Of a stretch of DNA of 64,000 nt, positions 6,677 through 30,417 are shown one piece after another; position 1 is the stretch's first letter, and every line of letters starts with the position of its first letter. The DNA lies in the NCBI RefSeq assembly GCF_030362795.1, contig NZ_JAUCBM010000011.1:1-64000 (forward strand). The letters run 5' to 3'. The DNA comes from Pseudochrobactrum kiredjianiae. Its GTDB lineage: Bacteria > Pseudomonadota > Alphaproteobacteria > Rhizobiales > Rhizobiaceae. Both the position numbers and the translations under genes were made by a program. The notes beneath the pieces were generated by a model. The model made no database searches. It was not told the origin of the DNA and worked only from the letters and a program-made list of their open reading frames with translations.

Positions 6677-8263
6677 ATGATTAATAAAACCAAATTATTA
6701 CTGGCAACAGGATTAGTGAATCTTGTTTTGCTATCTCCGGCACTTGCCGATCAGATGCTTCGTCTGGCGAGCACTGACGATCCCCGCACCATCGACGTCC
6801 AGATGACGACCAATGATTATACCATTCCTTTGAACGTCTATGACCGACTGGTTGAAGCTGAAACAATCGCTCCCGGTCAGTCTAAAATCCTCCCATCCCT
6901 CGCTGAAAGCTGGGATATTTCTGAAGATGGTAAGACCTATACTTTGCATTTACGCAAAGGCGTGCTGTTTCATAATGGCGAAGAGCTGACAGCCGACGAT
7001 GTCGTCTTTACCTATGACCGTATGCTCAATCCGGCGACCAAGGCACTCAACACCGACATTCTGGATTTTGTTGAAGGCGCAAAAGCCCGTCTGGACGGAA
7101 CAGCTCAATCCGTTTCAGGTCTGCAAGCTGTTGACCAATACACTGTTAAAATTGCTCTTACGCAGCCTTATGCTGCCTTCATCGCGCTGCTCGCCAGCCC
7201 GCAGGCCTCGATTTATAATCGTAAATTCACTGAGCCGCTCGGCAATAAATATGGCCTGTCTCCGGAAACTGTTAACGGAACCGGCCCGTTTATTTTGACC
7301 GAATACAGTCTGAATGACAGTCAGCGGATGGAAGCCAACGACAAATATTTCAAAGGTCGCTCCAAGCTGGACAGCGTTCTTATTCGTGTTGTGCCAGATG
7401 CCGAAACGATGCGGATGCTGTTTGAATCCGATGAACTTGACGTTTTTGACACGGATTCCGCCATCACACAGATCCCATATTTCACAAAAAGTGAAAAATG
7501 GAAGGATCAGATCCGTAAAGGCCCGGTTGCGGGGCTGAATTATTACAACATCAATCAGAAAATTAAGCCTTTTGATGATGTTCGGGTCAGAAAAGCCTTC
7601 CAGATGGGCATCAATCGTCAGGAAATTCTCGACAAGATGTTTTATGGCGAAGGACAGCTTGAAAACGGCATTCTGCCAAGTGGTGTAGCTTGCTACAAAC
7701 CAGCCACGCCAATTGAGTATAACCCGAAAAAAGCCAAAGAACTGCTGGTTGAAGCCGGTTATCCGAATGGCGTTGATATTGCCTTTTCGCAAGTCAGCAG
7801 CTGGTCATCAAAATGGGTTGATCTCAATCAGATCGTTCAGGCGCAGCTGAAAGAATCCGGCTTTAACACTGAAATCAAGGTTGTTGACGAGTCCGCCTAT
7901 TTCGACATGCGTAAAGGTGGCACGATCAACAATTACCCGCAGGTCTGGTCTGCCGATTTCAACGATCCCGACAACTTCTTCTACACATTCTTCAGCAAAT
8001 CGGGCACGTCAGTGCGTGGTTTCAATAATGAGGATCAGGAAGTTTTCGACGGCATCGAAAAAGCACGCAGCATGACCGATCCTGATGAGCGTTGTAAGCT
8101 TTATGAACAGCTTGCAGAGCGGATTGTTCAAACCGATGCAGCATGGGTACCGCTGTTTAGCCTCAACCATCTGTTTATTGTACAGCCACGCGTCAAGAAC
8201 TTCGTCGTTCCGTGGAACGGCTGGACAAGCATGAGCTATTACAAAATGGAAGTTGAAGAATAA
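6677..8263 (+). CDS. Peptide ABC importer A, periplasmic binding protein (family 5, DppA/OppA type)
   Basis: 528-residue solute-binding protein. Residues 1-24 form a Sec signal peptide (hydrophobic core, cleavage after PALA). The mature part follows the SBP_bac_5 pattern: LAESWDISEDGKTYTLHLRK, GVLFHNGEELTADDVVFTYD, the NGTGPF turn, and the KVRKAF-like VRVRKAFQMGINRQEIL. It delivers peptides to the membrane complex encoded downstream. GAGGGG precedes the ATG. First gene of a seven-kilobase operon; a strong hairpin after its stop codon suggests that it is expressed above the permease genes. The substrate cannot be read from sequence; the surrounding D-peptidase genes suggest unusual peptides. 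Confidence 0.9.
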   Translation: MINKTKLLLATGLVNLVLLSPALADQMLRLASTDDPRTIDVQMTTNDYTIPLNVYDRLVEAETIAPGQSKILPSLAESWDISEDGKTYTLHLRKGVLFHNGEELTADDVVFTYDRMLNPATKALNTDILDFVEGAKARLDGTAQSVSGLQAVDQYTVKIALTQPYAAFIALLASPQASIYNRKFTEPLGNKYGLSPETVNGTGPFILTEYSLNDSQRMEANDKYFKGRSKLDSVLIRVVPDAETMRMLFESDELDVFDTDSAITQIPYFTKSEKWKDQIRKGPVAGLNYYNINQKIKPFDDVRVRKAFQMGINRQEILDKMFYGEGQLENGILPSGVACYKPATPIEYNPKKAKELLVEAGYPNGVDIAFSQVSSWSSKWVDLNQIVQAQLKESGFNTEIKVVDESAYFDMRKGGTINNYPQVWSADFNDPDNFFYTFFSKSGTSVRGFNNEDQEVFDGIEKARSMTDPDERCKLYEQLAERIVQTDAAWVPLFSLNHLFIVQPRVKNFVVPWNGWTSMSYYKMEVEE

Positions 8264-8273
8264 CACAACTCTG

Positions 8274-8300
8274 TCCGGAGAGTGTGCGGCACTCTCCGGA
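8274..8300 (+). promoter_or_regulatory. Intercistronic hairpin after binding-protein gene A
   Basis: TCCGGAGAGTG (8274-8284) and CACTCTCCGGA (8290-8300) form a perfect 11-bp stem with loop TGCGG, 10 bp past the stop codon. No T-run follows, so a 3'-end stabiliser or partial terminator is more likely than a full stop. Such hairpins often raise binding-protein mRNA above that of the permeases. Confidence 0.7.
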
Positions 8301-8426
8301 TAATTTGTCGTAAATCTCCATAAAACATAGGTTTGGGACGAGACCGCCCCGCCAAATGATGTTTGCTGACTATAGCAATGTCGCTGGCCGCTTTGTTTCG
8401 CCTGAATAAATGAAAGCTTCCATACA

Positions 8427-9365
8427 ATGCTGACCTTTTTGATTAAGCGTATAGCAGTTTTTATTCCGGTTCTGATCGGGGTAACTGTATTGCTCTTCAT
8501 CATGATGAACGTCATTCCGGGCGATCCGGTTGCTCTTTTGATGAAAGAGCATGCCAGCGCTGAGGTCATTGAGCGCGTTCGTGCGCAGATGCATCTCGAT
8601 GACCCCTTGATTACCCGTTACTTCCGCTTTCTGTTCGCAGCAATGCAAGGCGACTTAGGTGTCTCCATCAAGCTCAACCGCGATGTGACACAGCTGATCC
8701 TGCAGGCATTTCCTAATACGCTTTATCTCGCAGCATGCGCTGCGGTTGTATCCTGGGCAATCGGAATTCCGGTCGGTATTCTCTCGGCCGTCAAACGCGA
8801 TTCAGCGGTTGATCACTTCTTCATGGGGTTTTCATTGCTCGGCGTTTCCATGCCGGTGTTCTGGTCAGCATTGTTGTTGCAATATATTTTCGCAATGCAA
8901 TTGAAGTGGCTGCCGGTTTCAGGGTTTTACGGCTTTAAATATGCCATCCTGCCAGCCATTGTTCTCGGCTGGAGCTCTGCAGGTGTTATTGCCCGCCTTG
9001 TGCGTTCGAGTTTGCTCGAAGTTATGCGGAACGATTACATCAGAACTGCGCGCGCAAAAGGCCTGCGTGAAATTCTGGTTATCCTCCGTCACGCGCTCAA
9101 AAATGCACTAATTCCTGTTGTGACGATCATGGCAATTCAGGTTGCCGGTCTCTTATCAGGCGCCGTTATCACCGAAGCAATTTTTGGTATTCCCGGTATT
9201 GGGCGTATCTCTGTGAACGCTATTCAAGCGCGTGACATGCCGCTGCTGCAAGGTTCCGTTTTATTCGCAACAGTGTTGGTGCTGATCGGCAATCTCATTG
9301 CGGATGTGCTTTATTCTGTCCTTGACCCTCGTATTCGCCATCAGATGAAGGGAGGTTCAAAATGA
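8427..9365 (+). CDS. Peptide ABC importer A, permease subunit 1 (DppB type)
   Basis: 312-residue inner-membrane protein with six predicted helices. The N-terminus (MLTFLIKRIAVFIPVLIG) and the early motif FIMMNVIPGDPV are typical of DppB/OppB. The EAA loop that contacts the ATPase is recognisable as DYIRTARAKGLREILVILRH, and the end LADVLYSVLDPRIR-like (IADVLYSVLDPRIRHQMK) is the family C-terminus. It pairs with the next permease to form the channel. Its last four bases overlap the next start (ATGA), indicating coupled translation. Confidence 0.92.
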   Translation: MLTFLIKRIAVFIPVLIGVTVLLFIMMNVIPGDPVALLMKEHASAEVIERVRAQMHLDDPLITRYFRFLFAAMQGDLGVSIKLNRDVTQLILQAFPNTLYLAACAAVVSWAIGIPVGILSAVKRDSAVDHFFMGFSLLGVSMPVFWSALLLQYIFAMQLKWLPVSGFYGFKYAILPAIVLGWSSAGVIARLVRSSLLEVMRNDYIRTARAKGLREILVILRHALKNALIPVVTIMAIQVAGLLSGAVITEAIFGIPGIGRISVNAIQARDMPLLQGSVLFATVLVLIGNLIADVLYSVLDPRIRHQMKGGSK

Positions 9366-10252
9366 CTGAACTTGCTCAGGCAAAAGACACTTATGTTGAA
9401 GAACAGCAAAGCGCGAGCTTTTTGAGTGATACCATTCGTGTCTTCAGAAGTAATACCATGGCGATGATAGGTTTGGTCATCGTTGGTATTCTGGTTTTCG
9501 CAGCAATATTTGCGCCATTTATCAGCCCGCATGATCCTTATCGTGTTGTGATGGACGAGCAGTTTCTCCCTCCCTCTCTTACACATTGGCTTGGTACAGA
9601 TAATTTTGGCCGGGATGTCCTAACGCGCATCCTTTACGGTGCGCGCATTTCACTCGTCGTTGGTATTGTGCCAAGTTTCATTTCGCTGGTTATCGGTACA
9701 ATTATGGGGATCATCAGCGGCTATTTCGGCGGCCGTATTGATTTCGCTATTATGCGCCTTGCCGACATGATGATCGCCTTCCCGTCACTTCTGCTGGCGA
9801 TGGTGGTGATGTACACATTAGGCGCCAATTTGTTCAATATTTTCATTGCTCTCAGTCTGGTTGGCTGGGCAGGTGTTGCGCGTGTTGTACGCTCTCAGAC
9901 ACTGGCACTGAAGGAAAAGGAATTTATTGAAGCAGCACGTGCCAATGGCTCCAAAAACGGAACGATTATGTTCCGGCACCTGTTTCCCAATGTTGTGCCG
10001 ACGCTGATTGTTCTGTTTTCCCTGAGCATTCCGGAAGCAATTATGTGGGAATCCAGCCTCAGTTTCCTTGGTGTTGGGGTTCAGCCGCCTGAAGCAAGCT
10101 GGGGGCTGCTGGTTGCCAAGGGCAAAGAATATCTGTTCGCCGCACCGCTCGTTGCCATTATGCCCGGGGTCGCGATCCTGATTACCGTGCTGGCATTCAA
10201 CTTTATTGGTGACGGAGTGCGTGACGCTCTTGATCCTTATATGAAAGATTAA
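9362..10252 (+). CDS. Peptide ABC importer A, permease subunit 2 (DppC type)
   Basis: 296-residue inner-membrane permease of the DppC/OppC type. After a soluble N-terminal tail comes FRSNTMAMIGLVIVGILVF (helix 1), then APFISPHDPY and the hallmark HWLGTDNFGRDVLTRILYGARISL. The EAA loop is EFIEAARANGSKNGTIMFRH, followed by LSFLGVGVQPPEASWG and GDGVRDALDP at the end. It forms the heterodimeric channel with the preceding subunit. Start overlaps the previous gene by four bases. Confidence 0.92.
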   Translation: MTELAQAKDTYVEEQQSASFLSDTIRVFRSNTMAMIGLVIVGILVFAAIFAPFISPHDPYRVVMDEQFLPPSLTHWLGTDNFGRDVLTRILYGARISLVVGIVPSFISLVIGTIMGIISGYFGGRIDFAIMRLADMMIAFPSLLLAMVVMYTLGANLFNIFIALSLVGWAGVARVVRSQTLALKEKEFIEAARANGSKNGTIMFRHLFPNVVPTLIVLFSLSIPEAIMWESSLSFLGVGVQPPEASWGLLVAKGKEYLFAAPLVAIMPGVAILITVLAFNFIGDGVRDALDPYMKD

Positions 10253-10262
10253 GGGGGCTGAT

Positions 10263-12253: not shown

Positions 12254-12363
12254 TCTAATTCAGACAATGACTTCTCTGCTTTCCTTAAATGATGAAACTA
12301 TGTGCTGTGTAAGTCGCTCAGGTGACAATAAAATTCGCTGAGCATTACAACGGATGGATAAAA

Positions 12364-13809: not shown

Positions 13810-13949
13810 ACGACAAAGTCAGGCGCCAACCGTTAGTGTTGAGAGTTGATATCAGCTACGTCTGAACGGCGGAACGATAGCTCTGTCTGGCCTCATCCAT
13901 CGTTCAGATCGTGACATTCAATATTATGCATTTTATTGAAACCATTTCA

Positions 13950-15970: not shown

Positions 15971-16053
15971 TTAACCTGCGGATGTATAAGCGGCCGAAAA
16001 TGGCCAAAAGCAAAATTGTAATATGACTATAATGAAAAAAATCTCGAAATACA

Positions 16054-16092
16054 GTATTCGGTGGAAGCTTGTTCATTACGACCACCGAATAC
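16054..16092 (-). terminator. Probable terminator of the M55 D-aminopeptidase gene
   Basis: GTATTCGGTGG (16054-16064) and CCACCGAATAC (16082-16092) are perfect 11-bp complementary arms with a 17-nt loop, 79 bp past the M55 stop. In the minus direction a seven-T run follows about 11 bases after the stem. The hairpin also sits upstream of the histidine kinase gene, so a regulatory role there is possible. Confidence 0.55.
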
Positions 16093-16170
16093 AAAAACTA
16101 AGCCCAAGTGTGAGGCCTTAAAATAAACCTGTAATTTACAATTTAAATCTCACGCTTTTCCGGTGAAAAT

Positions 16171-16995
16171 TTAGAATGTCAGGCGTGAATTGTAACCGAC
16201 CACAAATTGGATGAAGCGTGACAAATCAACAATGTCGTCAGCATAATAACGGATTGTATAACCATCGGTGCGTTCCACACATTTAAGGTAAGATAAGTAT
16301 TCTGCGGGCAAACGATTGCGGAATACAATCTCCAGTACCGGACTTTCAAGCTTAAACGGCTTGGCGTTTCCGATATTAGCGAAAGCTGATTTCACACCTT
16401 CACGTAATTTCTTATGAGCAACAGCTGGAGTGAGAGTCAGTGCAGATTGTGTGCTGTAGGTCTTTTTTACTTCAACTTGAACAATATCGCCAATCTTTTC
16501 ATTGATTTCGGCCAGAGCCACATCGTCGCCTGAAGCTAAGATAACCGGTACATCATAATGTCCGGCAATAGCAGCATTAATGCCTGCCTCCGGCATGATA
16601 ACACCATTAATCCTAACCTCAGCAAAAGCTGTGCCGCCAATCGTATGAGAGAGCACCCCACCCATATGACTTGCACCGGCATGATAACCAAGCAGCATCG
16701 CGCCCGTATAAGTGCCAATTTCAACCCCTTGCATCATCATCAACGGGCGTGGCCAGCTACGCACAATCTGTACATATTCCGGCAGACGATCAATCAGAAT
16801 GCTCTCTCCATTGCCGTGAGAGTCACTGAGAATAATCTCATCCACACCTTCTTCACGGGCAGCTTCGCAAGCATGTACAACAGTATCAGTCATCCATCTT
16901 CTGGCATTTTCATATTCAAAGCCTTCCGGCCCCAGATGATCACGACTAACAACACCAACAATGCCTTCAATATCAGCAGAAATATACAGACGCAT
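16171..16995 (-). CDS. dppA: D-aminopeptidase, DppA family (peptidase M55)
   Basis: 274-residue cytoplasmic zinc peptidase. The start MRLYISADIEG is the family N-terminus, with D8 and E10 as metal ligands; H60 (LSDSHGNG), the histidine in LLGYHAG (residue 105) and E136 (MPEAGIN) complete the expected site, and LSHTIGG holds the catalytic histidine region. Known members (Bacillus subtilis DppA) cleave D-Ala-D-Ala and D-Ala-Gly-Gly. ATG at 16995 is chosen because AAAGGGG lies just upstream; the frame extends 23 codons further without a site. It is transcribed away from the M81 gene across a shared palindrome. The name follows B. subtilis usage and must not be confused with the E. coli binding protein DppA. 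Confidence 0.9.
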   Translation of the reverse strand: MRLYISADIEGIVGVVSRDHLGPEGFEYENARRWMTDTVVHACEAAREEGVDEIILSDSHGNGESILIDRLPEYVQIVRSWPRPLMMMQGVEIGTYTGAMLLGYHAGASHMGGVLSHTIGGTAFAEVRINGVIMPEAGINAAIAGHYDVPVILASGDDVALAEINEKIGDIVQVEVKKTYSTQSALTLTPAVAHKKLREGVKSAFANIGNAKPFKLESPVLEIVFRNRLPAEYLSYLKCVERTDGYTIRYYADDIVDLSRFIQFVVGYNSRLTF

Positions 16996-17050
16996 TTGTT
17001 TCCCCTTTGCCGCGCTCCCGACGCGGAATTGTGTTTGACTTTCGAATGGT

Positions 17051-17081
17051 AAACATATTTTCATTATTAGAAAATATGTTT
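17051..17081. promoter_or_regulatory. 31-bp inverted repeat between the divergent M55 and M81 genes, probable operator
   Basis: AAACATATTTTC (17051-17062) and GAAAATATGTTT (17070-17081) are perfect 12-bp arms around the spacer ATTATTA. It lies 55 bp before the M55 start and 20 bp before the M81 start, right where a single regulator could switch both promoters. Being AT-rich it is unlikely to act as a terminator. Candidate binders encoded nearby are the XRE-cupin protein and the LuxR-type response regulator. Confidence 0.65.
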
Positions 17082-17101
17082 CTTAATATGGGGAATAACA
17101 A

Positions 17102-18559
17102 ATGAAGCTGTTCATCGCAGGACTGGACACCGAGACGAATACATTTTCTCCGATGCAAACCGGACATGAAGCCTTCAGTGAGAACCAGATTGCATATGGA
17201 GATGCGACCAGTAAACCTTTGAATTGCTGTTCTTCTCAGCTGTTTGTCTGGCGCAAAGCAGCAGAAGCCAAAGGCTGGGACATTGTTGAAAGCCTGTGCG
17301 CCGTGGCTGAACCCGGCGGCAAAACCACCCGTGCTGTTTATGAAAGTTTTAGAGCAACAATCCTGAATGATCTTAAAGCTGCGATGCCTGTTAACGGGGT
17401 TATGCTCGCATTGCATGGTGCTTGTGTTGCGGATGGCTACGATGATGTTGAAGGCGACCTGATTGAGCATGTGCGCCAGATTGTTGGCCCCGACATTGCC
17501 ATTGCAGTTGAACTCGATCTGCATTGTCACCTCACTGATCGTATGGTCGACAACGCCACCATAATTGCGACGTACAAAGAATACCCACATACGGATATTG
17601 AGGAAGTTGCGGCTCAGCTTTTTGCTGTGATGGTGAAGACTCTGGCTGGCGAAGTGCAACCGGTTATGGCGCTGTATGATTGCAGAATGATCAGCACCTT
17701 TCGGGTCCATCAGGCACCATTACGCGGGATTGTGGACAGAATGAAAGCCATGGAAGGCCATAATGGTATCTTGTCGCTCTCTTTCGGACACGGTTTTCCG
17801 TGGGGTGATGTTGAAGATGTCGGCGCAAAAATGCTGGTGGTTACAGATAATGACAAGGCGCAGGCAGCCAGAATTGCTCAGGAGTTTGGCGAAGAAATCT
17901 TCAATGCCCGTGATACCCTTCTAGGCGACTACCTGACCATTGATGAAGCACTTGACCATGCAGTTGCTGCAACTCAGGGCCCGATTATTCTGGCTGATGT
18001 CTCCGACAATGCCGGTGGCGGTGCACCGGGGGATTCCACCTTTATTCTGCGACGCATTATCGAGCGCGGTATTGAAGATGTTGCCAGCTGTCTTTACTGG
18101 GATCCGATTGCAGTCCGTATGTGCAAAGAAGCCGGAGAAGGTGCGACGCTTCCCTTACGTATTGGCGGTAAAATTGGTGAGGCATCAGGCGACCCGCTCG
18201 ATCTAGTTGTGACTGTACGGCGTATCAGCGCTGGCATTACCCAGCGCTTTGGCATCGTGCCGCTCTCTATCGGCGATGCCGTATGGGTTAGTGCAGGCAG
18301 CGTGGATATTGTTTTGAATAGCGCACGCACACAGACTTTTCATCCGGAATGCATGAGTGCGCTGGGACTTGACCCAACCAAGAAAAAAATTGTTATTGTG
18401 AAATCAAGCAATCACTTTCGTGCCGGTTTTGAGCCGATTGCCCGTGAGATTCACTATGTTGAGGCACCCGGTGCTCTGCAACCGCACTTCGATAAAGTGC
18501 CTTTCACCAAATTGAAAAAAACTTACTGGCCACGGGTGGATAACCCTTTCCCCATTTAA
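17102..18559 (+). CDS. M81 family metallopeptidase (MlrC/microcystinase C type)
   Basis: 485-residue protein with the MlrC N-terminal domain (opening FIAGLDTETNTFSP, then MLALHGACVADGYDDVEGDL) and the MlrC C-terminal domain (ILADVSDNAGGGAPGDSTF). D139, H141 and H163 (ELDLHCH and EYPHTD) have the same spacing as the zinc ligands D167, H169 and H191 of Sphingomonas MlrC, which opens tetrapeptide products of microcystin degradation at the D-Glu/Adda region. No signal peptide, so cytoplasmic. Wider family members occur in many non-degrading bacteria beside peptide ABC importers; the true substrate here is unknown but an unusual or D-residue peptide is plausible. GGGGAA precedes the ATG. Confidence 0.88.
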   Translation: MKLFIAGLDTETNTFSPMQTGHEAFSENQIAYGDATSKPLNCCSSQLFVWRKAAEAKGWDIVESLCAVAEPGGKTTRAVYESFRATILNDLKAAMPVNGVMLALHGACVADGYDDVEGDLIEHVRQIVGPDIAIAVELDLHCHLTDRMVDNATIIATYKEYPHTDIEEVAAQLFAVMVKTLAGEVQPVMALYDCRMISTFRVHQAPLRGIVDRMKAMEGHNGILSLSFGHGFPWGDVEDVGAKMLVVTDNDKAQAARIAQEFGEEIFNARDTLLGDYLTIDEALDHAVAATQGPIILADVSDNAGGGAPGDSTFILRRIIERGIEDVASCLYWDPIAVRMCKEAGEGATLPLRIGGKIGEASGDPLDLVVTVRRISAGITQRFGIVPLSIGDAVWVSAGSVDIVLNSARTQTFHPECMSALGLDPTKKKIVIVKSSNHFRAGFEPIAREIHYVEAPGALQPHFDKVPFTKLKKTYWPRVDNPFPI

Positions 18560-18597
18560 AAAAAACGCCCTTCCGGCTGTTCAAAACACCGGAAGGG
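18560..18597 (-). terminator. Rho-independent terminator of the D-amino acid lyase gene
   Basis: CCCTTCCGG (18568-18576) and CCGGAAGGG (18589-18597) form a 9-bp stem with a 12-nt loop. In the minus direction it is followed by CGTTTTTTTT, and it begins 8 bp past the stop at 18606. The opposing M81 gene ends inside the T-run side, so the same hairpin may limit read-through from both genes. Confidence 0.85.
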
Positions 18598-18605
18598 AAC
18601 CACTC

Positions 18606-19868
18606 TTAAAAATAGGTCTTCAATGCATCCGTAATGTTGTAATCCTCATCCACCAGAGAGAGGATATCCCATTTATCAAATGTTGTGCATGGGTGTGAAA
18701 TTCCCATACCGATCATATCTCCGACCGACAGCTCAAGATCTTCGGGAAAACGCATAAAACCGTGCTGATCATTCATATCAATGATCTCACACGCCTCAGG
18801 CAAATCCCGTGGCTTGCCACCCTGTTTGGACACCAGATGCGGTATCGGAAAACCAGCATCCGTACCACAATCGCGCCGTCCTGCCGAAACCAGTGCCAAG
18901 CCTTTTTCCGGAATTGACTGCACATAAGCCCAGACTTCCAAAGCTCGGCGCAAACCATCAGTTTCACCCGTATGGGCAGCCAGTCGCTGATGTTGTGCAT
19001 GATACAAGGCTGAGTCATGCGTGACATAACAACCGCTGCGCGTAACCACGCGTGCGCTGCATCCTGCCAGTCTTTCCAGAACAATATCATAATAAGAAGA
19101 GCCGCCAGCGGTCACGAGCGGATTTTCACAGCCGAACAGACCTTCATCCTTACAGGCTTGATAAAGCACTGCAATATCATCCATAAAGGCCGCAACAACC
19201 TGTTCTTTATGTTCTGCCGGTGCTTTAATCAGCCCTTCAAAAGCCTCTACGCCAACCAGAGACAGCTCTGGCGCAGCACTGATTTTTCTGGCCAGTTCCA
19301 AAGCGGCCTGATTGGTGCGGCAGCCCGTGCGCCCGCCTTCAAATCCACGTTCCACCAAGACTTGCAACGGCGTACCCACCTGATGACGACGCATAGCAGC
19401 CGATGCTGCCACAATGCCTGCTTCACTGTCAATCAGCATCATAAATTCAATCTTGCCAGCTTTGACAATGCCTGCAATCGCATCCAGTTCAGCACGACCA
19501 ACTGCTTGATTAGCAAGAATAATACGGGTCGCACCAAAGGCAACGCAAACCTGCAATTGCTGGATTGTAGCGACGGTCAGAGCCCATGCCCCATCAGCAA
19601 GCTGCTGAGCCATAATCTGCGGACACATCGTGGTTTTAACATGCGGAGCAATCAAGGCGCCGCGCTCTGCCACGAATTTCTGCATCCAGCGGGAATTGTG
19701 CTGAAGTGCTTGCGCACGTATGACAGCAACAGGCAAAGGCACATCTCCTGCCAGCACGTTCCAGCCCTGCTTGCCAATTTCACCCAATCCGAGTTTTACA
19801 CCGGATGGGATAGCTTTCGACGTATCATCCACTACAATCGCTTTTAGTGGCTCAAGATTGAAGGTCAT
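18606..19868 (-). CDS. PLP-dependent D-amino acid lyase (D-serine dehydratase / D-threonine aldolase type)
   Basis: 420-residue fold-type III enzyme with an alanine-racemase-like barrel. K78 in APHVKTTMCP is the expected PLP lysine. The C-terminal D-serine-dehydratase-like domain ends with SHPCTTFDKW, whose H392 and C394 match the zinc-binding His-x-Cys of eukaryotic-type D-serine dehydratases. Such enzymes convert D-serine to pyruvate and ammonia, or cleave D-threonine and other D-3-hydroxy amino acids. It would consume D-amino acids released by the neighbouring peptidases. Divergent from the XRE-cupin regulator. Dehydratase versus aldolase activity cannot be decided by eye. Confidence 0.85.
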   Translation of the reverse strand: MTFNLEPLKAIVVDDTSKAIPSGVKLGLGEIGKQGWNVLAGDVPLPVAVIRAQALQHNSRWMQKFVAERGALIAPHVKTTMCPQIMAQQLADGAWALTVATIQQLQVCVAFGATRIILANQAVGRAELDAIAGIVKAGKIEFMMLIDSEAGIVAASAAMRRHQVGTPLQVLVERGFEGGRTGCRTNQAALELARKISAAPELSLVGVEAFEGLIKAPAEHKEQVVAAFMDDIAVLYQACKDEGLFGCENPLVTAGGSSYYDIVLERLAGCSARVVTRSGCYVTHDSALYHAQHQRLAAHTGETDGLRRALEVWAYVQSIPEKGLALVSAGRRDCGTDAGFPIPHLVSKQGGKPRDLPEACEIIDMNDQHGFMRFPEDLELSVGDMIGMGISHPCTTFDKWDILSLVDEDYNITDALKTYF

Positions 19869-19918
19869 GGATGCTCTTTCTCATTCGCATTCGTTATAAA
19901 TATCAGATGACAAGATCG

Positions 19919-19966
19919 GAAAAAATTTTCTTATCATATCTATCAATTTTCATTATCGTCAATGAA
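19919..19966. promoter_or_regulatory. Palindromic elements in the divergent lyase/XRE promoter region
   Basis: GAAAA-AA-TTTTC (19919-19930) and TTCATT-atcgtc-AATGAA (19949-19966) lie in the 148-bp gap between the D-amino acid lyase and its divergent XRE-cupin regulator. Either could be an autoregulatory site. Both are short and AT-rich, so chance is not excluded. Confidence 0.35.
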
Positions 19967-20016
19967 ATTAAAACGAAGTATTCAGGCATAACTGAAACGC
20001 AAGGTGTAAAAATAAA

Positions 20017-20640
20017 ATGAGCGATCAAAAAGCCGTTCTTGGTGATTATCTCAAAGATATTCGTCTTCGCAATCATTGGACATTATCACAGGTAAGCACC
20101 ATGACCGGTCTTGCGGTCTCGACCTTATCGAAGGTTGAAAACAATCAAATGTCCCTGACCTATGATCGTCTGGTACAACTCGCTCAAGGCTTGAAAATTG
20201 ATATCGTTGAGCTTTTTGGCACATCTTCAGAGAATGATACGCCCAACCTGCTTGGTCGACGCACGTTCACCCTTGTAGGGCATGGCCGCTCAATTAAAAC
20301 TCAGAATTATGATTATCTCTATCTCTGCACCGAGATTTCCAAAAAATCGATGGTACCGATCTTTGCTGTTGCACATGCGCGCACGCTGGAGGAATTCGGC
20401 CCGCTTATTCGCCACACCGGTGAAGAATATTTCTATGTCCTTGAAGGCGAACTGGAGCTGCATACAGAGCATTATGCGCCCTTACGTCTCAAAAAAGGCG
20501 ATTCCGCTTATTTTGATGCCACAACCGGCCACGCATATCTCAGTCTGAGTGAAGAGCCGGCACACATCCTGTGTGTCTGCTCCACGTCAGAAAGCGAACT
20601 GGCTGCCTCCATACACAAAGAGACAAATATTCGCGACTGA
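20017..20640 (+). CDS. XRE-family regulator with C-terminal cupin sensor domain
   Basis: 207-residue transcription factor. Residues about 8-65 are a Cro/CI-type helix-turn-helix (LGDYLKDIRLRNHWTLSQVS, then LAVSTLSKVENNQMSLTYDRL). Residues about 110-190 form a cupin_2 barrel (RHTGEEYFYVLEGELELHTE, then LKKGDSAYFDATTGHAY) expected to bind a small ligand. Relatives such as PuuR and SutR control amine, amino acid and sulfur use. It is divergent from the D-amino acid lyase and directly upstream of importer B, so it is the best candidate for local control. Confidence 0.9.
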   Translation: MSDQKAVLGDYLKDIRLRNHWTLSQVSTMTGLAVSTLSKVENNQMSLTYDRLVQLAQGLKIDIVELFGTSSENDTPNLLGRRTFTLVGHGRSIKTQNYDYLYLCTEISKKSMVPIFAVAHARTLEEFGPLIRHTGEEYFYVLEGELELHTEHYAPLRLKKGDSAYFDATTGHAYLSLSEEPAHILCVCSTSESELAASIHKETNIRD

Positions 20641-20774
20641 TCTCCTTTTGCATAAAATTAGCGTACGATAAGAAAAATAGTTGCGCTTCGTAAAATCGTT
20701 ACCTACTCTGGAGCTGCGGTAAAATTGCCAAAAAGGCACTGTTCGTCACCGCCGAACTTCGGAGGGGATTAAAA

Positions 20775-22316
20775 ATGATAATTTCAAAGTGGAAATCCGT
20801 CTGTCTTGCTTTTTTATTAACTTCAACCGCTCTTTCAGGAGCACTCGCCGCGCAGGATGTGCTTATTCTTGCGCGGGCGGAAGATCCGCCAACGGCCGAT
20901 CCGGGTATTGAGATCAGCAATAGCGGCTACACACTGACCTATGCTACCTATGAGAGACTTGTAGCCTATAAAGGCGAGACAACTGAGGTTGGGCCCCAGC
21001 TCGCAGAGAGTTGGACATCGGATGATGCAGGTCTTGTCTGGACTTTCAAAATCGCCAGCGGTCATAAATTTGACGATGGATCGCCCGTAGACGCTGCAGC
21101 AATTAAATTCAGCTTTGACCGTTTGATGAAGCTGAAAGCCGGTCCGTCCGATGCGTTTCCAGTTCTAAAAGAGGTTGAGGTTGTTGACCCTCAGACTGTT
21201 AAATTCATTCTGAATGCCCAGTTTGCACCTTTTATTTCCACACTCGCCGTTTCCGGTGCTGCCATTATTAATCCTAAAGTAATGGAGCATGAAAAAGACG
21301 GCGACATGGCTAAAGGCTGGCTTGCCGAACATTCCGCTGGCAGCGGTGCCTACCGTATCGCCAGTTGGGAGCGCAACCAAAGCATCGTGCTTGAACGCAA
21401 TGAGCACTATAATGGCGCTGAACCTGCGTTAAAACAGGTCGTCATGCAGATTGTCGGCGATGTTTCAGGGCGCCGCCTGAAGCTGGTCAGCGGTGATGCA
21501 GATATTATTGAGCAAATTCCGCTCGATCAGGCTGAGGCACTGGCAAAAGATCCATCGGTTGTGGTTGAGAGCAACCCCAGCATGTATGTTAATTACATCT
21601 ATATGAACAATAAGCAGGCACCGCTTGATAATGTAAAAGTTCGTCAGGCCATATCCTATGCTATTGATTATCAGGGCATTATTGACGGCATTATGCTTGG
21701 TCAGGCCAAGCAGATGCGCGGCCCTGTGCCAAGCGGTATGTGGGGGCATGATCCTGACGGTTTCCAATACACTTACGATGTTGAAAAAGCGAAAGCTTTG
21801 CTCGCAGAATCCGGCGAGAAGAATATCAGCCTCACCTATACGTTTTCGCAGGCTGATCCCGCATGGGAGCCGTTTGGCCTTGCACTGCAAGCCTATCTCG
21901 CAGAAATCGGCATTAAACTTGAGCTGAAATCCGTAGCGGATACGACCAAACGCGAACTTGCAGCCACCGGAAAATACGACATGTCTCCCGGGGCATGGAC
22001 ACCGGATTTTGCTGATCCCTATATGTTTATGAATTACTGGTTTGATCCGGATCGCATGGGCGGGCCCGGCAACCGTTCATTCTACAACAATCCGGAAGTT
22101 GGCAAACTGGTCAAAGAAGCTGCCAGTATTGTAGATGAAGATAAGCGCAAAGCGCTTTATATCGAAGCACAGAAAATCTCTACGCAGGATGCGCCATATC
22201 TCTATATTATGGAAAAGAACGACATCTTTGCCCGACGTGCAGTGGTGAAGGGTTACGTCTATAACCCGATGCTCATTCAGGTCTATAATTTCGCAACAAT
22301 GTCGAAATCAGAATAG
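20775..22316 (+). CDS. Peptide ABC importer B, periplasmic binding protein (family 5)
   Basis: 513-residue solute-binding protein with a signal peptide of about 25 residues (SGALA, then AQDVL). The mature part shows the SBP_bac_5 landmarks LAESWTSDDAGLVWTFKIA, KFDDGSPVDAAAIKFSFDR, the SGAYRI turn and NVKVRQAISYAIDYQGII. The tail contains PYLYIMEKNDIFARR, as in many dipeptide/glutathione-type binders. GGAGGGG precedes the start. It leads a five-gene operon; two hairpins lie between it and the permease genes. Confidence 0.9.
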   Translation: MIISKWKSVCLAFLLTSTALSGALAAQDVLILARAEDPPTADPGIEISNSGYTLTYATYERLVAYKGETTEVGPQLAESWTSDDAGLVWTFKIASGHKFDDGSPVDAAAIKFSFDRLMKLKAGPSDAFPVLKEVEVVDPQTVKFILNAQFAPFISTLAVSGAAIINPKVMEHEKDGDMAKGWLAEHSAGSGAYRIASWERNQSIVLERNEHYNGAEPALKQVVMQIVGDVSGRRLKLVSGDADIIEQIPLDQAEALAKDPSVVVESNPSMYVNYIYMNNKQAPLDNVKVRQAISYAIDYQGIIDGIMLGQAKQMRGPVPSGMWGHDPDGFQYTYDVEKAKALLAESGEKNISLTYTFSQADPAWEPFGLALQAYLAEIGIKLELKSVADTTKRELAATGKYDMSPGAWTPDFADPYMFMNYWFDPDRMGGPGNRSFYNNPEVGKLVKEAASIVDEDKRKALYIEAQKISTQDAPYLYIMEKNDIFARRAVVKGYVYNPMLIQVYNFATMSKSE

Positions 22317-22330
22317 CGGAACTCTGCACA

Positions 22331-22361
22331 TCACGGCGGGTAAAATCATGAACCGCCGTGA
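22331..22361 (+). promoter_or_regulatory. First intercistronic hairpin after binding-protein gene B
   Basis: TCACGGCGG (22331-22339) and CCGCCGTGA (22353-22361) form a perfect 9-bp stem with a 13-nt loop, 14 bp past the stop codon. No T-run follows. The placement matches the hairpin after binding-protein gene A. Confidence 0.65.
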
Positions 22362-22381
22362 TAACTCAACCTCAGGCATCA

Positions 22382-22423
22382 ACCGGCAGACTATGCACCT
22401 GAACTGGTGTTCTGTCTGCCGGT
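22382..22423 (+). promoter_or_regulatory. Second intercistronic hairpin after binding-protein gene B
   Basis: ACCGGCAGA (22382-22390) pairs with TCTGCCGGT (22415-22423); inside, CACC (22396-22399) pairs with GGTG (22406-22409), leaving a symmetric 5-nt by 5-nt internal loop and a 6-nt apical loop. A tandem hairpin pair is likely to protect the upstream mRNA end and dampen permease expression. Confidence 0.6.
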
Positions 22424-22507
22424 CTCATCCCTTCCTATCTGCGGCAGCATCAGAATTGACAGCGCCAAGACTGTCAAATTACGTTCTGTTCAAAAGGGTT
22501 TCCACTG

Positions 22508-23521
22508 ATGGCAATCACCCGAATTATTATTCCGCGTCTTATCTTGTTGTTTTTTGTGGTTTTCGGCGTCGCCGTTATCACATTTACGATTTCGCATCTT
22601 ATTCCGGGTGATCCGGCGCGTATGATTGCAGGGGATCGCGCCAGCGCCGAAACGCTTGAAAATATCAGGCGTAATCTTGGTCTTGACCGGCCTGTCGTCG
22701 AGCAATTTACCATCTATATCGGCAATCTTCTGCAAGGCGATCTCGGAACGTCCCTACGCACTAATCGTCCTGTTGCCGCTGACATACGCACATTTTTACC
22801 CGCAACACTTGAGCTTGGCACAGTCGCTTTGCTGATTTCTATTCTCATCGGCGTGCCGCTCGGTGTATTATCAGCGGTCTATAAAGACGGACCTATTGAT
22901 CAGGTGGCACGAACTGTATCGGTGTGCGGTATCTCTATGCCAGTATTTTGGTTCGGGCTGGTTCTCATTTATCTCTTTTATGCCAAGTTTCAGATCTTAC
23001 CCGGCAGCGGGCGTCTCGCAATGGGCATTGTTGCACCAGAACGCATAACCGGATTTCTGCTGATTGACTCACTGCTTCAGGGGCGTTTTGATGCTTTCCG
23101 CAGTGCTCTTTATCACATTATTCTACCCGGTTTTGTGCTGGCATTCGCCAATATGGGCGTGATTACCCGCCAAATCCGTGCCTCAATGCTGGATGTCTTG
23201 CAAGAGGATTATATCCGTACCGCAAAGGCAAGCGGGCTGCGCAGACGCATCATTATTTTCAACTATGCCCTGAGAAATGCTTTGATCCCGTCCATCACTT
23301 TGCTCGGGCTGGCGCTGGGTGACCTGCTTTATGGTGCGGTACTGACCGAAACGATTTTTGCATGGCCAGGCATGGGCACCTATGTCGTGACCTCGATTCA
23401 AACGCTCGATTTCCCAGCCATTATGGGTTTCACCATCGTTGCTTCCATCGGTTATGTGCTGATCAATCTGATGGTTGATCTGGCTTATATGCTCGCCGAT
23501 CCGCAGATCAGGGAGGTTTGA
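22508..23521 (+). CDS. Peptide ABC importer B, permease subunit 1 (DppB type)
   Basis: 337-residue membrane protein. ISHLIPGDPARMIAGDRAS near the N-terminus, the EAA loop DYIRTAKASGLRRRIIIFNY and the end VDLAYMLADPQIREV identify a DppB-type permease. It is slightly longer than importer A subunit 1 because of an insert before the EAA loop (GSGRLAMGIVAPERITGF). The next start lies two bases past its stop. Confidence 0.91.
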   Translation: MAITRIIIPRLILLFFVVFGVAVITFTISHLIPGDPARMIAGDRASAETLENIRRNLGLDRPVVEQFTIYIGNLLQGDLGTSLRTNRPVAADIRTFLPATLELGTVALLISILIGVPLGVLSAVYKDGPIDQVARTVSVCGISMPVFWFGLVLIYLFYAKFQILPGSGRLAMGIVAPERITGFLLIDSLLQGRFDAFRSALYHIILPGFVLAFANMGVITRQIRASMLDVLQEDYIRTAKASGLRRRIIIFNYALRNALIPSITLLGLALGDLLYGAVLTETIFAWPGMGTYVVTSIQTLDFPAIMGFTIVASIGYVLINLMVDLAYMLADPQIREV

Positions 23522-23523
23522 GT

Positions 23524-24429
23524 ATGTCGGTAACACTGCCAACAGAACAAGCTACAGCCGCCGCATTACCAAAAACCAAAACCATATATGACCGGCTGCA
23601 TTTTCTCTGGTATCTCAGCCGTCGTAGTCCCCTCACCTTGCTTGGTGCTGGTATCATTACGCTTGTGCTGATTATGATTATATTTGCACCATGGATTGCC
23701 CCTTATAATCCGGACAAGATATCCCTGACTGCACGATTAGCGCCACCAAGTGCTGCCCACTGGTTCGGAACGGATGAGGTCGGACGCGATCTGTTTTCCC
23801 GTGTTGTTTATGGTGCGCGCGCTTCTTGCGGCGCAGCATTTATGATTGTGCTGATTTCTATGAGCATCGGCGTAATGATCGGGTGTCTGTCCGGTGTACT
23901 TGGCGGACGGATCGATACCGGCATTATGCGCCTGATGGATGTGGTGATGGCATTGCCGGCACTGGTACTGGCCATGGCATTGGCTGCGGCTCTGGGGCCA
24001 AGCCTTTTCAACTCAATGCTTGCAGTAGCGATCGTTCGCATTCCTGCTTATGTGCGCCTTGCGCGCGGGCAAACACTGTCCTTACGCGAGCAGGTTTATG
24101 TGAAAGCTTCACGCACTTATGGCGCCTCCCCTTTCTATATTCTCCGCTGGCATATTCTGCCGAATGCTATGTCACCGATTATCGTACAAGCCACACTTGA
24201 TCTGGGTGGGGTTGTTCTCATTGCAGCCGCATTAAGTTTCATTGGTCTTGGCGCACAACCGCCAACAGCCGAATGGGGCGCTTTGGTGAGCAGCGGTCGC
24301 AGTTTTATGCTCGATCAATGGTGGTATGCAACATTTCCTGGTCTGGCAATTCTAATCACCGCTATGGGCTGCAACCTGCTGGGTGACGGTATCCGTGATA
24401 TGCTTGATCCGCGCCTGAGGACCAGATGA
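23524..24429 (+). CDS. Peptide ABC importer B, permease subunit 2 (DppC type)
   Basis: 301-residue membrane permease. APWIAPYNPDKISL, then HWFGTDEVGRDLFSRVVYGA, the EAA loop VYVKASRTYGASPFYILRWH and GDGIRDMLDPRLR at the end place it in the DppC type. ATG at 23524 (GGAGG seven bases upstream) is preferred over an in-frame TTG two codons earlier. Overlaps the ATPase start by four bases. Confidence 0.91.
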   Translation: MSVTLPTEQATAAALPKTKTIYDRLHFLWYLSRRSPLTLLGAGIITLVLIMIIFAPWIAPYNPDKISLTARLAPPSAAHWFGTDEVGRDLFSRVVYGARASCGAAFMIVLISMSIGVMIGCLSGVLGGRIDTGIMRLMDVVMALPALVLAMALAAALGPSLFNSMLAVAIVRIPAYVRLARGQTLSLREQVYVKASRTYGASPFYILRWHILPNAMSPIIVQATLDLGGVVLIAAALSFIGLGAQPPTAEWGALVSSGRSFMLDQWWYATFPGLAILITAMGCNLLGDGIRDMLDPRLRTR

Positions 24430-25451
24430 TGACAGCAACATTGACGAAATCAACTGAGCCTGTATTGGCCATTCATGGTCTATCGCTGGAATTTCCAACA
24501 TATAGTGGTGCAGTTAAAGCCCTCGATAATATCTCTATTGATGTCAGGCAGGCCGAAATTATTGGCATTGTCGGAGAATCCGGCTGCGGCAAGTCTGTCA
24601 CGACAATGGCAGCAACACGATTACTGCCGGAAGGACGCTACAAGATCACCAGTGGCTCCGTGCGGCTGTTTGGTCGTGATACATTGGCGATGGAAGAAAA
24701 AGAATTACAGGATGTCCGCGGTAAACTGGTTTCAACTATTTTTCAGGAGCCTATGAATGCGCTTAATCCCACCATCCGCATCGGTAAGCAGCTGATCGAT
24801 ATTATCCAGCGCCATGAAAAAGTCAGCACAACAGAAGCCACACGCGTTGCGCGGGATATTCTGGCTGACATGCTCATCGGCGAACCGGAACGGGTAATGA
24901 AAGCCTATCCGTTTGAATTGTCAGGCGGTATGCGTCAGCGTGTGCTGATTGCGATGGCTTTTTCCTGCAATCCTAGTCTGATTATCGCAGATGAACCGAC
25001 AACCGCACTTGATGTGACGGTACAAGCCGTGATCTTGCGCCTTATCCAGAACCGTGCGCGGCGTACCGGCACTTCGGTCGTCTTTATTTCACATAATATT
25101 GCCGTGGTTTCACAACTCTGCGACCGGCTTTACGTGATGTATGCAGGCAGAATTGTCGAGAAGGGTATAACACGCCAGGTTCTTGAATCACCGCAACATC
25201 CTTATACGCAAGCACTGTTGCGCTGTCTGCCGGAGCGGGTAAATCCCAAACAGGAACTGGAGGCCATTCCGGGTACTGTGCCTAATTTATTACATCCGCC
25301 AGCGGGTTGTTTTTTCGAGCCGCGCTGCAAAGAAGCGACTGAGCAATGCAAAGTTCAATCCCCCGCCTTGGCTGGTGTTGAAACACAGCAGGTTGCATGC
25401 TGGCAACGCGAAGTTTTTACATCAGCATGTCATAAAGGGGAACTGCAATGA
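24426..25451 (+). CDS. Peptide ABC importer B, ATPase subunit 1 (DppD type)
   Basis: 341-residue ATPase with Walker [10 protein letters not shown]-loop TIFQEPMNALNPTIRI, signature LSGGMRQRVLIAMAF, Walker B LIIADEPTTALD and switch FISHNIAVV (N where most relatives have D). The C-terminal extension GCFFEPRCKEATEQC is the iron-sulfur-type cysteine segment of oligopeptide importers. Two adjacent ATG codons make the exact first residue uncertain by one. Confidence 0.91.
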   Translation: MMTATLTKSTEPVLAIHGLSLEFPTYSGAVKALDNISIDVRQAEIIGIVGESGCGKSVTTMAATRLLPEGRYKITSGSVRLFGRDTLAMEEKELQDVRGKLVSTIFQEPMNALNPTIRIGKQLIDIIQRHEKVSTTEATRVARDILADMLIGEPERVMKAYPFELSGGMRQRVLIAMAFSCNPSLIIADEPTTALDVTVQAVILRLIQNRARRTGTSVVFISHNIAVVSQLCDRLYVMYAGRIVEKGITRQVLESPQHPYTQALLRCLPERVNPKQELEAIPGTVPNLLHPPAGCFFEPRCKEATEQCKVQSPALAGVETQQVACWQREVFTSACHKGELQ

Positions 25452-26443
25452 CACAAACTCTTCCCGTTCTTGATATTGCCAATCTTTCCGTTCGGTTTGC
25501 TGTCTCCCGCAACTGGCTTGGCCGTCCAACCTCATTTGTACATGCTGTTAATGGTGTTGATTTACAGGTACGAGCCGGAAAAAGCGTAGGGATTGTGGGG
25601 GAATCCGGCTGCGGAAAAAGCACGCTCGCGCAAGCTATCATCGGACTTGTCGATTATAACAATGGTAGTGTTGCGATTGACGGACAGGATTTTCACAGTG
25701 CCCAAGGAAAAGCGAAACGCGATATCCGGCAAAAAATGCAAATTGTATTTCAGGACCCGCAATCCTCCCTCGACAGGCGTTTGCCTGTTTGGCGGCTGAT
25801 CAGTGAGCCGCTGCATATCCGCGGCGGCTACAGCAAGGCCCAATTGCGGGCGAAAGCTGCAGAACTGGCAACAGCTGTAGGCTTGCGACCGGAGCATCTT
25901 GATCGTCTGCCGCATGAGTTCTCAGGCGGGCAGCGCCAGCGCATTGCCATTGCCCGTGCGATCAGCACCGACCCCGATTTGCTGGTTTTGGATGAGCCGA
26001 CTTCAGCACTCGATGTGTCTGTACAAGCACAGATCATCAATTTGCTGCTGAAATTGCAGCGCGATCTCGGCCTGTCTTATTTGCTGATATCCCATGATGT
26101 AGCACTTGTGCGCCACTTCTGTGATGATGTTGCTGTAATGTATCTGGGACAAATCGTTGAGGCAGGCCCCGCAAGCGATGTATTGAACTCTCCGAAACAC
26201 CCTTACACTCAAACGCTGCTCGCTGCAGCGCCAAGTTTGGAAAATCCATTACCGGAGCTCTCTGAGGTTAAGATTGGCGAACTGCCTAACAACCGTATCC
26301 TGCCTGCCGGTTGTTATTATCGTGAACGTTGCGGCAAAGCCGTTTCGGCTTGTGCAATACCACAAACTTTACATGAGATATCCCCTCGCAAAACCGATAA
26401 TAATCTGTCCACTCAAGTGCGTTGCCATCTGGCATCCGTTTGA
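25448..26443 (+). CDS. Peptide ABC importer B, ATPase subunit 2 (DppF type)
   Basis: 331-residue partner ATPase: [12 protein letters not shown] (Walker A), IVFQDPQSSLDRRLPV (Q-loop), [15 protein letters not shown] (signature), LLVLDEPTSALDVS (Walker B), LISHDVALV (switch). The C-terminal cysteine segment reads GCYYRERCGKAVSAC. Translationally coupled to the previous ATPase by ATGA overlap. Last gene of operon B; a structured hairpin region follows at 26499-26546. Confidence 0.91.
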   Translation: MTQTLPVLDIANLSVRFAVSRNWLGRPTSFVHAVNGVDLQVRAGKSVGIVGESGCGKSTLAQAIIGLVDYNNGSVAIDGQDFHSAQGKAKRDIRQKMQIVFQDPQSSLDRRLPVWRLISEPLHIRGGYSKAQLRAKAAELATAVGLRPEHLDRLPHEFSGGQRQRIAIARAISTDPDLLVLDEPTSALDVSVQAQIINLLLKLQRDLGLSYLLISHDVALVRHFCDDVAVMYLGQIVEAGPASDVLNSPKHPYTQTLLAAAPSLENPLPELSEVKIGELPNNRILPAGCYYRERCGKAVSACAIPQTLHEISPRKTDNNLSTQVRCHLASV

Positions 26444-28906: not shown

Positions 28907-28944
28907 TTTATAATTCCAGTTCCCTTTATTGATATTATTCAGAA

Positions 28945-29514: not shown

Positions 29515-29544
29515 CGCCCCTCCAAGTGCACTTTCAGCAATTAA

Positions 29545-30404: not shown

Positions 30405-30417
30405 TAATCACAAATTT

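What the first reader, a model, noticed from the sequence alone, without database searches (positions are those of the whole stretch)
6677..26443. Candidate uptake-and-breakdown island for D-residue or otherwise unusual peptides
Seen: two complete Dpp-type importers flank an S12 serine hydrolase (SxxK, YxN, HTG), an M55 DppA-type peptidase with its D8/E10/H60 metal site, an M81 MlrC-type peptidase with zinc-ligand spacing equal to MlrC, and a D-serine dehydratase/D-threonine aldolase-type enzyme. Known: M55 DppA cleaves D-Ala peptides, some S12 enzymes are D-aminopeptidases, and MlrC acts on a peptide containing D-residues. Inferred: the block imports such peptides (for example peptidoglycan stem peptides or cyclic peptide fragments) and degrades them down to keto acids and ammonia. 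I know of no description of this exact gene combination as one system.
Basis: partly seen in the sequence, partly recalled or inferred. Interest (0 to 1): 0.72.

Follow-up and report, generated by a model that had tools for sequence, protein, structure and literature searches.

The report
D-dipeptide importer with substitute peptidases
Half of the proposed gene island is a conserved, jointly controlled set of genes that looks built to take up short peptides made of mirror-image (D) amino acids and break them down with unusual enzymes; the other half belongs to separate units that happen to lie beside it.

Summary
The genes are as described, but the 20-kb "island" splits. Window 16171-26443 (Pseudochrobactrum) is a real module: M55 peptidase, M81 peptidase, fold-III D-serine-dehydratase-like enzyme, XRE-cupin regulator and a five-gene importer. 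That importer is not Dpp-type: its five subunits are closest to E. coli DdpABCDF (D-Ala-D-Ala transporter). The core (M55, M81, regulator, ddpABCDF) is whole in 14 of 14 loci examined (found through M55) in Pseudochrobactrum, Ensifer/Sinorhizobium and Phyllobacterium. Nine of nine Ddp importers sampled elsewhere sit beside the dipeptidase gene ddpX; this genome has no match to the DdpX family, and M55+M81 stand in its place. A shared palindrome (TAGGAAA-N3-6-TTTCCTA) lies in three module gaps in 14 of 14 loci; a strict form fits three places in the 4.46-Mb genome, two of them here. Importer A plus S12 has no palindrome in its promoter gaps, stands without the module in a sister genome, and is absent where the module occurs in another; the histidine kinase is separate too. 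Best reading: a ddp-type D-dipeptide uptake and catabolic module with M55/M81 instead of DdpX, feeding D-amino-acid-removing enzymes. The substrate is inferred. New variant of a known kind; M81's role is the open question.

The parts
16171..16995 (-). M55 (DppA-type) metallopeptidase; listed ORF runs to 17064 but the start is 16995
   Evidence: PF04951 281.8 bits; active-site residues as in 1hi9; relatives start at this Met
17102..18559 (+). M81 (MlrC-type) metallopeptidase
   Evidence: PF07364+PF07171; zinc ligands of 7ylq conserved, MlrC general base E70 not
18606..19868 (-). D-serine-dehydratase-like fold-III PLP/metal enzyme (H-P-C motif)
   Evidence: PF14031+PF01168; best solved relative 3gwq 290 bits; 61% identical gene in the Phyllobacterium cluster
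20017..20640 (+). XRE-type regulator with cupin domain
   Evidence: PF01381+PF07883; 72-96% identical orthologues in the relatives
20775..22316 (+). DdpA-type substrate-binding protein
   Evidence: 46% to E. coli DdpA against 29% to DppA; shares the W-[ST]-P-D-F-A-D-P motif with DdpA
22508..23521 (+). DdpB-type permease
   Evidence: 60% to DdpB against 41% to DppB
23518..24429 (+). DdpC-type permease
   Evidence: NF007376 D,D-dipeptide permease 489.6 bits, cut-off 434
24426..25451 (+). DdpD-type ATPase
   Evidence: 56% to DdpD against 42% to DppD
25448..26443 (+). DdpF-type ATPase
   Evidence: 55% to DdpF against 46% to DppF
17068..17085 (.). operator-like palindrome in the M55/M81 divergent gap
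   Evidence: 12/14 match; a match of 11/14 or better in this gap in 14 of 14 loci
19916..19933 (.). operator-like palindrome between the D-serine-dehydratase-like gene and the regulator
   Evidence: 12/14 match; a match of 11/14 or better upstream of the regulator in 14 of 14 loci
20688..20705 (.). weaker operator-like palindrome between the regulator and ddpA
   Evidence: 11/14 here and in P. asaccharolyticum, 13-14/14 in the Ensifer and Phyllobacterium loci

Best explanation
A ddp-type uptake and catabolic module for dipeptides that contain D-amino acids. The DdpA-type protein catches the dipeptide in the periplasm and DdpBCDF pumps it into the cytoplasm. There the M55 D-aminopeptidase, with M81 as partner on peptides that M55 cannot open, cuts it in place of the usual dipeptidase DdpX. 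The released D-amino acids are removed by the D-serine-dehydratase-like enzyme (to keto acid and ammonia), or in Ensifer by a D-amino-acid-dehydrogenase-like flavoprotein. The XRE-cupin protein controls the promoters through one palindromic operator. Shown by sequence: family membership, orthology, co-inheritance, no DdpX-family match, shared palindrome. Inferred: substrate stereochemistry, each enzyme's activity, the division of labour between M55 and M81, and that the XRE-cupin protein is what binds the palindrome.
For: The five importer-B subunits are each closest to E. coli DdpA/B/C/D/F, 46-60% identity, among the Ddp, Dpp and Gsi proteins compared; in a tree all Ddp loci group apart from Dpp/Gsi/importer A with support 100. 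M81, XRE-cupin and ddpABCDF accompany M55 in 14 of 14 loci, which were found through M55. Among plasmid records the 11 with M55 at 60% or more are the same 11 with M81 and with SBP_B at 60% or more. Nine of nine other sampled Ddp loci carry DdpX. PF01427, which E. coli DdpX matches at 265.9 bits, has no match in 10 of 10 genomes, this one and three Ensifer among them. Palindrome: 11/14 or better in the three gaps of 14 of 14 loci; 36 of 37 distinct matches of 12/14 or better lie in module gaps (29 in the three gaps, 7 between ddpF and creatininase), 1 such match in 17 control loci; 2 of 3 strict matches in the whole genome. Each of the 14 loci has a D-amino-acid-type enzyme: D-serine-dehydratase-like in 3, a DadA-like flavoprotein 23-24 nt after the M55 stop codon in 11. 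Nitratireductor carries a non-homologous D-serine ammonia-lyase (TIGR02035 over cut-off) directly before its ddpA. B. subtilis DppA is D-stereospecific (PMC2651629, passages).
Against: No activity or transport data. NCBIfam equivalog cut-offs are missed for M55 (188.7 of 430), M81 (352.5 of 999), the D-serine-dehydratase-like gene's one model BhcC (90.6 of 690) and the Ensifer flavoprotein (153.6 of 383). SBP_B is only 46% identical to DdpA, and its lack of the DppA carboxylate anchor R383 is not diagnostic: importer A's binding protein, GsiB and the third binding protein lack it too. M81 is not needed for D-Ala-D-Ala if M55 acts on it, so M81 (and creatininase in 11 of 14 loci) suggests a more complex substrate. 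An Agrobacterium ddp cluster pairs with M81 and diaminopimelate genes instead. The tree does not say whether DdpX was lost or never present. The strict palindrome does not find the module sites of G005, whose spacers differ, and the consensus was chosen after looking at the gaps. The Ensifer loci are close relatives, so the 14 loci amount to about three independent lineages.
Confidence: 0.6

Rival explanations
1. The module takes up peptidoglycan stem fragments (diaminopimelate- or D-isoGlu-containing peptides) rather than plain D,D-dipeptides. M81 opens an X-D-Glu-type bond, as MlrC opens Adda-Glu, and M55 trims the D-Ala end.
For: Agrobacterium CFBP6626: ddp genes in one run with lysA and dapF (both over curated cut-offs) and an M81 gene. 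MlrC hydrolyses Adda-Glu (PMC9505733, passages). Rhizobiales lack AmpG and use YejBEF-YepA for muropeptides (PMC9790009, start of abstract in the listing; a term search of its text for Ddp/Dpp/D-Ala-D-Ala found nothing).
Against: The Agrobacterium M81 is only about 30% identical to this one. tblastn with the Agrobacterium lysA and dapF proteins finds nothing in the window or in the 13 other module stretches. Ddp importers elsewhere go with the dipeptidase DdpX. The MlrC general base E70 and substrate residues W59, F67 and F96 are not conserved here.
Confidence: 0.21
2. The importer has drifted to another ligand (opine-like, N-blocked or cyclic peptide, or L-peptide) and M55/M81 act as general metallo-amidohydrolases.
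For: Creatininase-family gene beside 11 of 14 loci (DppA-like binding protein next to it wherever the stretch reaches that far), with a palindrome match of 12/14 or better between ddpF and creatininase in 7 Ensifer loci. SBP_B misses the equivalog cut-offs, and its pocket residues do not single out D-ligands.
Against: A D-amino-acid-type enzyme in each of 14 loci; five-subunit orthology with Ddp.
Confidence: 0.13
3. One reading: the whole 6677-26443 stretch (importer A, S12, kinase, M55, M81, lyase, importer B) is one D-peptide system.
For: Physical adjacency in this genome only.
Against: Of 7 genus genomes, SBP_A and S12 are in G000, G001, G002 and the module's M55 in G000 and G005. In G001 the A-S12 run stands without any module gene. 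Kinase elsewhere in G001 and G005. No palindrome in the gaps before A or S12: the one 11/14 match, at 6714, lies inside the SBP_A coding sequence.
Confidence: 0.06

Closest known systems
E. coli DdpXABCDF (D-Ala-D-Ala dipeptidase and transporter; operon described in PMC8743547, passages)
   Same: Same five transporter genes in the same order, 46-60% identical
   Different: No DdpX-family match in the genome; M55+M81 and a D-amino-acid-type enzyme instead; XRE-cupin regulator and palindrome instead of the RpiR-type regulator seen in 8 of 9 sampled loci or NtrC/RpoN control
Bacillus subtilis dpp operon with DppA D-aminopeptidase (M55)
   Same: M55 enzyme beside a peptide ABC importer (operon structure recalled; enzyme in PMC2651629, passages, and 1hi9)
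   Different: Importer there is not Ddp (recalled); no M81 (recalled); M55 here scores below the DppA equivalog cut-off
Microcystin mlr clusters (MlrC, M81) and the Blastomonas fulva T2 7.9-kb cluster (PMC9505733, passages and outline)
   Same: M81 zinc site; the B. fulva cluster has an M55 gene (named mlrC there), an MlrB-like serine peptidase and four ABC genes whose permease hits include D,D-dipeptide permeases of Ensifer
   Different: No MlrA noticed here; M81 lacks MlrC E70; in the passages read, the B. fulva cluster has no M81 and no regulator or operator link
Azospirillum and Agrobacterium vitis M55 loci with Gsi-type importers
   Different: Gsi-type importer with P1 and/or isoaspartyl peptidase genes; M55 only 34-37% identical

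Membership tests
Ddp transporter (DdpABCDF) | Five subunits each closest to the Ddp counterpart, order A-B-C-D-F | tested here: met
   (compared with E. coli Ddp, Dpp and Gsi)
Ddp transporter (DdpABCDF) | DdpC curated model NF007376 over cut-off | tested here: met
   489.6 of 434 bits
DdpXABCDF system | DdpX (M15/VanX-type) dipeptidase with the transporter | tested here: not met
   PF01427 in 0 of 10 genomes including G000; E. coli DdpX matches that model; DdpX in 9 of 9 comparison loci
DdpXABCDF system | Transports D-Ala-D-Ala | not testable with these tools
   needs binding or uptake assay
Peptidase M55 | PF04951 over cut-off and the active-site residues of 1hi9 | tested here: met
   281.8 of 25 bits; residues
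DppA equivalog | NF058634 over cut-off | tested here: not met
   188.7 of 430
Peptidase M81 | PF07364 and PF07171 over cut-off; E-D-H-H zinc site | tested here: met
MlrC microcystinase | NF041767 over cut-off; general base E70 | tested here: not met
   352.5 of 999; E70 aligns with Cys42
Fold-III D-serine dehydratase | PF14031 with H-x-C motif rather than the aldolase H-x-D | tested here: met
   HPC at 392-394; 3gwq has HPC and 4v15 D-threonine aldolase HVD in the alignment; meaning of the motif recalled
Fold-III D-serine dehydratase | D-serine deaminating activity | not testable with these tools
   no assay
S12 D-aminopeptidase | NF009622 over cut-off | tested here: not met
   48.8 of 443

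The most novel reading that the evidence does not exclude
M55 and M81 are a standing enzyme pair for D-residue or iso-linked peptides: adjacent M81 and M55 also occur without any ddp gene nearby in two genomes (one genus) of another family of the same class, 53-57% identical to the Phyllobacterium proteins (G238, G334). The physiological role of the large M81 family would then be scavenging of D-residue or iso-peptides from cell walls. Microcystin-degrading MlrC would be a recruit from that pathway, and Ddp importers would draw on interchangeable peptidases (DdpX, M55+M81, M81+diaminopimelate enzymes).
Probability: 0.3. Interest if true: 0.68.

Novelty: new variant of a known kind. Interest (0 to 1): 0.46.

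Why it matters
It separates a real regulon from accidental neighbours. It also gives the M81 family, known by function mainly from microcystin breakdown, a concrete physiological setting: apparently co-regulated with a D,D-dipeptide-type importer and an M55 peptidase. And it points to a way of using D-dipeptides without the VanX/DdpX-type dipeptidase. Substrate, enzymes and regulator are all directly testable in culturable soil bacteria.

Tried and rejected
Rejected: one 20-kb system. Rejected: importer B as Dpp-type. Rejected: M81 as a microcystinase equivalent (cut-off and E70). Rejected as first choice: D-threonine aldolase reading (HPC motif). The third strict whole-genome match of the palindrome (C12:46024) lies inside predicted open frames and was not counted as an operator. 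The window creatininase gene 29682-30404 is not the orthologue of the Ensifer/Phyllobacterium one (34-37% over part of the length), so it was left out. I first took the loss of the DppA R383 loop as a DdpA signature; the same alignment shows it is lost in SBP_A, GsiB and the third binding protein too, so it is not used, and confidence was lowered from 0.62 to 0.6 (the two live rivals raised by 0.01 each) for that. My first gene-caller on high-GC loci missed real genes (one search showed no M81 in L035/L037); it was replaced by tblastn, which found it. Root polarity of the Ddp tree is not resolved. No structure prediction was run. Paper searches made: (one search failed on a term). In those listings I saw no description of ddp with M55 and M81; subscription journals are largely not held.

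Dropped or partial counts: of the 11 plasmid records with a 60%-or-better M55, 6 neighbourhoods were fetched (H1, H2, H4, H7, H10, H11); of the 12 listed records with a Ddp-like binding protein at 46-51%, 4 were fetched (H132, H133, H139, H140). Of the four class genomes with a 47-50% M55, two have M81 next to it and two (G116, G398) have none in the 18- and 15-kb stretches held. In G002 (61% complete) S12 and SBP_A are on different contigs and no importer gene was recognised in the 9.5-kb contig with S12, so their linkage rests on the window and G001. The Ddp survey scored at most 3 candidates per genome, so misses are possible. L010 and L048 are the same contig and were counted once.
Full report
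What is there. The host is taken to be Pseudochrobactrum: the nearest named M55 relative is in P. asaccharolyticum (94%; the rest are Ensifer/Sinorhizobium at 84-85%), and a genus-mate of the window's genome, G005, holds a contig of the same length with the same 94% match. The M55 gene starts at 16995, not 17064, leaving a 106-bp divergent gap with M81.

Importer B is a Ddp transporter. Against E. coli K-12 Ddp, Dpp and Gsi proteins (fetched), SBP_B, B_B, B_C, B_D and B_F are 46, 60, 60, 56 and 55% identical to DdpA, B, C, D and F, against 29-46% for the Dpp counterparts. Importer A is closest to Dpp or Gsi at 31-47% (for its C subunit, DdpC scores between GsiD and DppC). B_C passes the curated D,D-dipeptide permease model. 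In a tree of DdpA+B+C the module loci form a clade with support 100, and all Ddp loci together are split from Dpp, Gsi and importer A with support 100; the position of the root within Ddp is weak. DppA grips dipeptides with R383 (carboxylate) and D436 (amine) (PMC12136057, passages). SBP_B and DdpA keep the Asp within a shared W-[ST]-P-D-F-A-D-P motif and lack the Arg-bearing loop; but SBP_A also has the Asp, and SBP_A, GsiB and the third binding protein also lack the Arg, so this does not prove the ligand.

The conserved module. M81, XRE-cupin and ddpABCDF accompany M55 in the window, in P. asaccharolyticum, in eleven Ensifer/Sinorhizobium loci and in Phyllobacterium T1293: 14 of 14 loci examined, which were found by their M55. 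Identities to the window are 65-98%. In plasmids, the 11 records with a 60%-or-better M55 are the same 11 with such an M81 and such an SBP_B. The D-serine-dehydratase-like gene is in 3 of 14 loci (window, P. asaccharolyticum, Phyllobacterium). The other 11, all Ensifer/Sinorhizobium, instead have a flavoprotein (PF01266) 23-24 nt after the M55 stop codon, whose best curated family is D-amino-acid dehydrogenase, below its cut-off. A creatininase-family gene lies beside 11 of 14 loci.

DdpX is missing. In the nine genomes with a DdpA at E 1e-80 or better drawn from order, phylum and class samples (397, 398 and 385 genomes, partly overlapping), the ddp genes sit with DdpX in 9 of 9, as in E. coli, P. 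syringae and Pantoea. The two exceptions among the fetched non-module loci are Agrobacterium CFBP6626 (ddp + lysA + dapF + M81) and Nitratireductor OM-1 (ddp + DsdA-type D-serine ammonia-lyase). The DdpX family PF01427 has no match in 10 of 10 genomes tested, including this one and three Ensifer; E. coli and P. syringae DdpX do match the model. Neither DdpX protein gives a tblastn match in the window or in the 13 other module stretches.

One palindrome. The gaps M55|M81, upstream of XRE, and XRE>ddpA share a palindrome TAGGAAA-N3-6-TTTCCTA. In the window, the only two 12/14 matches in 64 kb (0.55 expected in order-1 simulations) lie in the first two gaps, and the third gap has an 11/14 match. 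In 14 of 14 loci each gap has a match of 11/14 or better. Of 37 distinct matches of 12/14 or better in these loci, 29 lie in the three gaps and 7 between ddpF and creatininase; one lies in coding sequence. Seventeen control loci have one such match in all. A stricter pattern with one mismatch occurs at three places in the window's whole genome, two of them here; the reversed control pattern occurs six times. The strict pattern misses the G005 module sites (longer spacers) and finds one other place each in G005, G001 and G004. The consensus was read from the same gaps, mainly the Ensifer ones, so this is strong but not blind evidence; lineages are about three.

What is not part of it. S12 and SBP_A occur in the same three of seven genus genomes (G000, G001, G002). 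G001 has SBP_A-B-C-D-F-S12 at 87-99% with no other window gene recognised in the 19.9-kb stretch; in the fragmentary G002 the two are on different contigs. G005 has the module without them. The kinase is at unrelated places in G001 and G005. Importer A and S12 have no palindrome match of 11/14 or better in the gaps before them.

M55 with M81. Two genomes of one genus in another family carry adjacent M81 and M55 (56-57% and 53-54% to the Phyllobacterium proteins) with no ddp gene found in the stretch held; two other genomes with a similar M55 show no M81. M81 keeps the MlrC zinc ligands, N41, H133 and D332, but not E70 (general base), W59, F67 or F96 (roles from PMC9982164, passages). It is therefore probably an active hydrolase of other specificity.

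How it most likely works. Dipeptides with D-residues are bound by SBP_B, imported by DdpBCDF, cut by M55 with M81, and the D-amino acids are deaminated. The regulator would sense a product or substrate through its cupin domain (inferred). Import and cutting of D-peptides is inferred from homology (Ddp; B. subtilis DppA is D-stereospecific, PMC2651629, passages) and from the D-amino-acid-type enzyme in each of the 14 loci. No step has been tested biochemically in these organisms in anything I read.

Prior description. The listings of searches show no paper on ddp with M55 and M81. The nearest is the Blastomonas fulva cluster (PMC9505733, passages), where an M55 gene, four peptide-ABC genes and an MlrB-like gene are discussed as microcystin genes.

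Noticed in passing
L078 6589-15970 (Agrobacterium tumefaciens CFBP6626 plasmid): ddpA-B-C-DF in one run with diaminopimelate decarboxylase, diaminopimelate epimerase and an M81 gene, with IS6-family genes on both sides: another ddp variant without DdpX in the stretch.
   Followed up: partly
L076 7588-14383 (Nitratireductor OM-1 plasmid): ddpABCDF preceded by a DsdA-type D-serine ammonia-lyase, non-homologous to the window's enzyme but with the same expected reaction; no DdpX found in the 19-kb stretch.
   Followed up: partly
L035 9534-11808 and L037 8481-10755: M81 and M55 as adjacent genes without any peptide importer found nearby, in two genomes of one genus in another family of the class.
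   Followed up: partly
G000:C1:577156-577941: A second, 31% identical M55; each of the seven genus genomes searched has one such copy. No M81 or ddp gene was found around the copies examined in G000 and G004.
   Followed up: no
27329-34043: A third peptide importer with a binding-protein gene, a winged-helix regulator and a creatininase-family gene, next to the module but without a palindrome match of 11/14 or better.
   Followed up: partly
34154-42568: HMG-CoA lyase, acyl-CoA ligase, biotin carboxylase, carboxyltransferase and acyl-CoA dehydrogenase genes with an AraC-type regulator at 42528: looks like a leucine/isovalerate-type degradation cluster (reading recalled).
   Followed up: no
PMC9505733, gene B5J99_03490: A published 'mlrC' that by its table is an M55 (DppA-type) peptidase, not an M81 MlrC; the best hits of the permeases named mlrD3 and mlrD4 include Ddp permeases.
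   Followed up: partly
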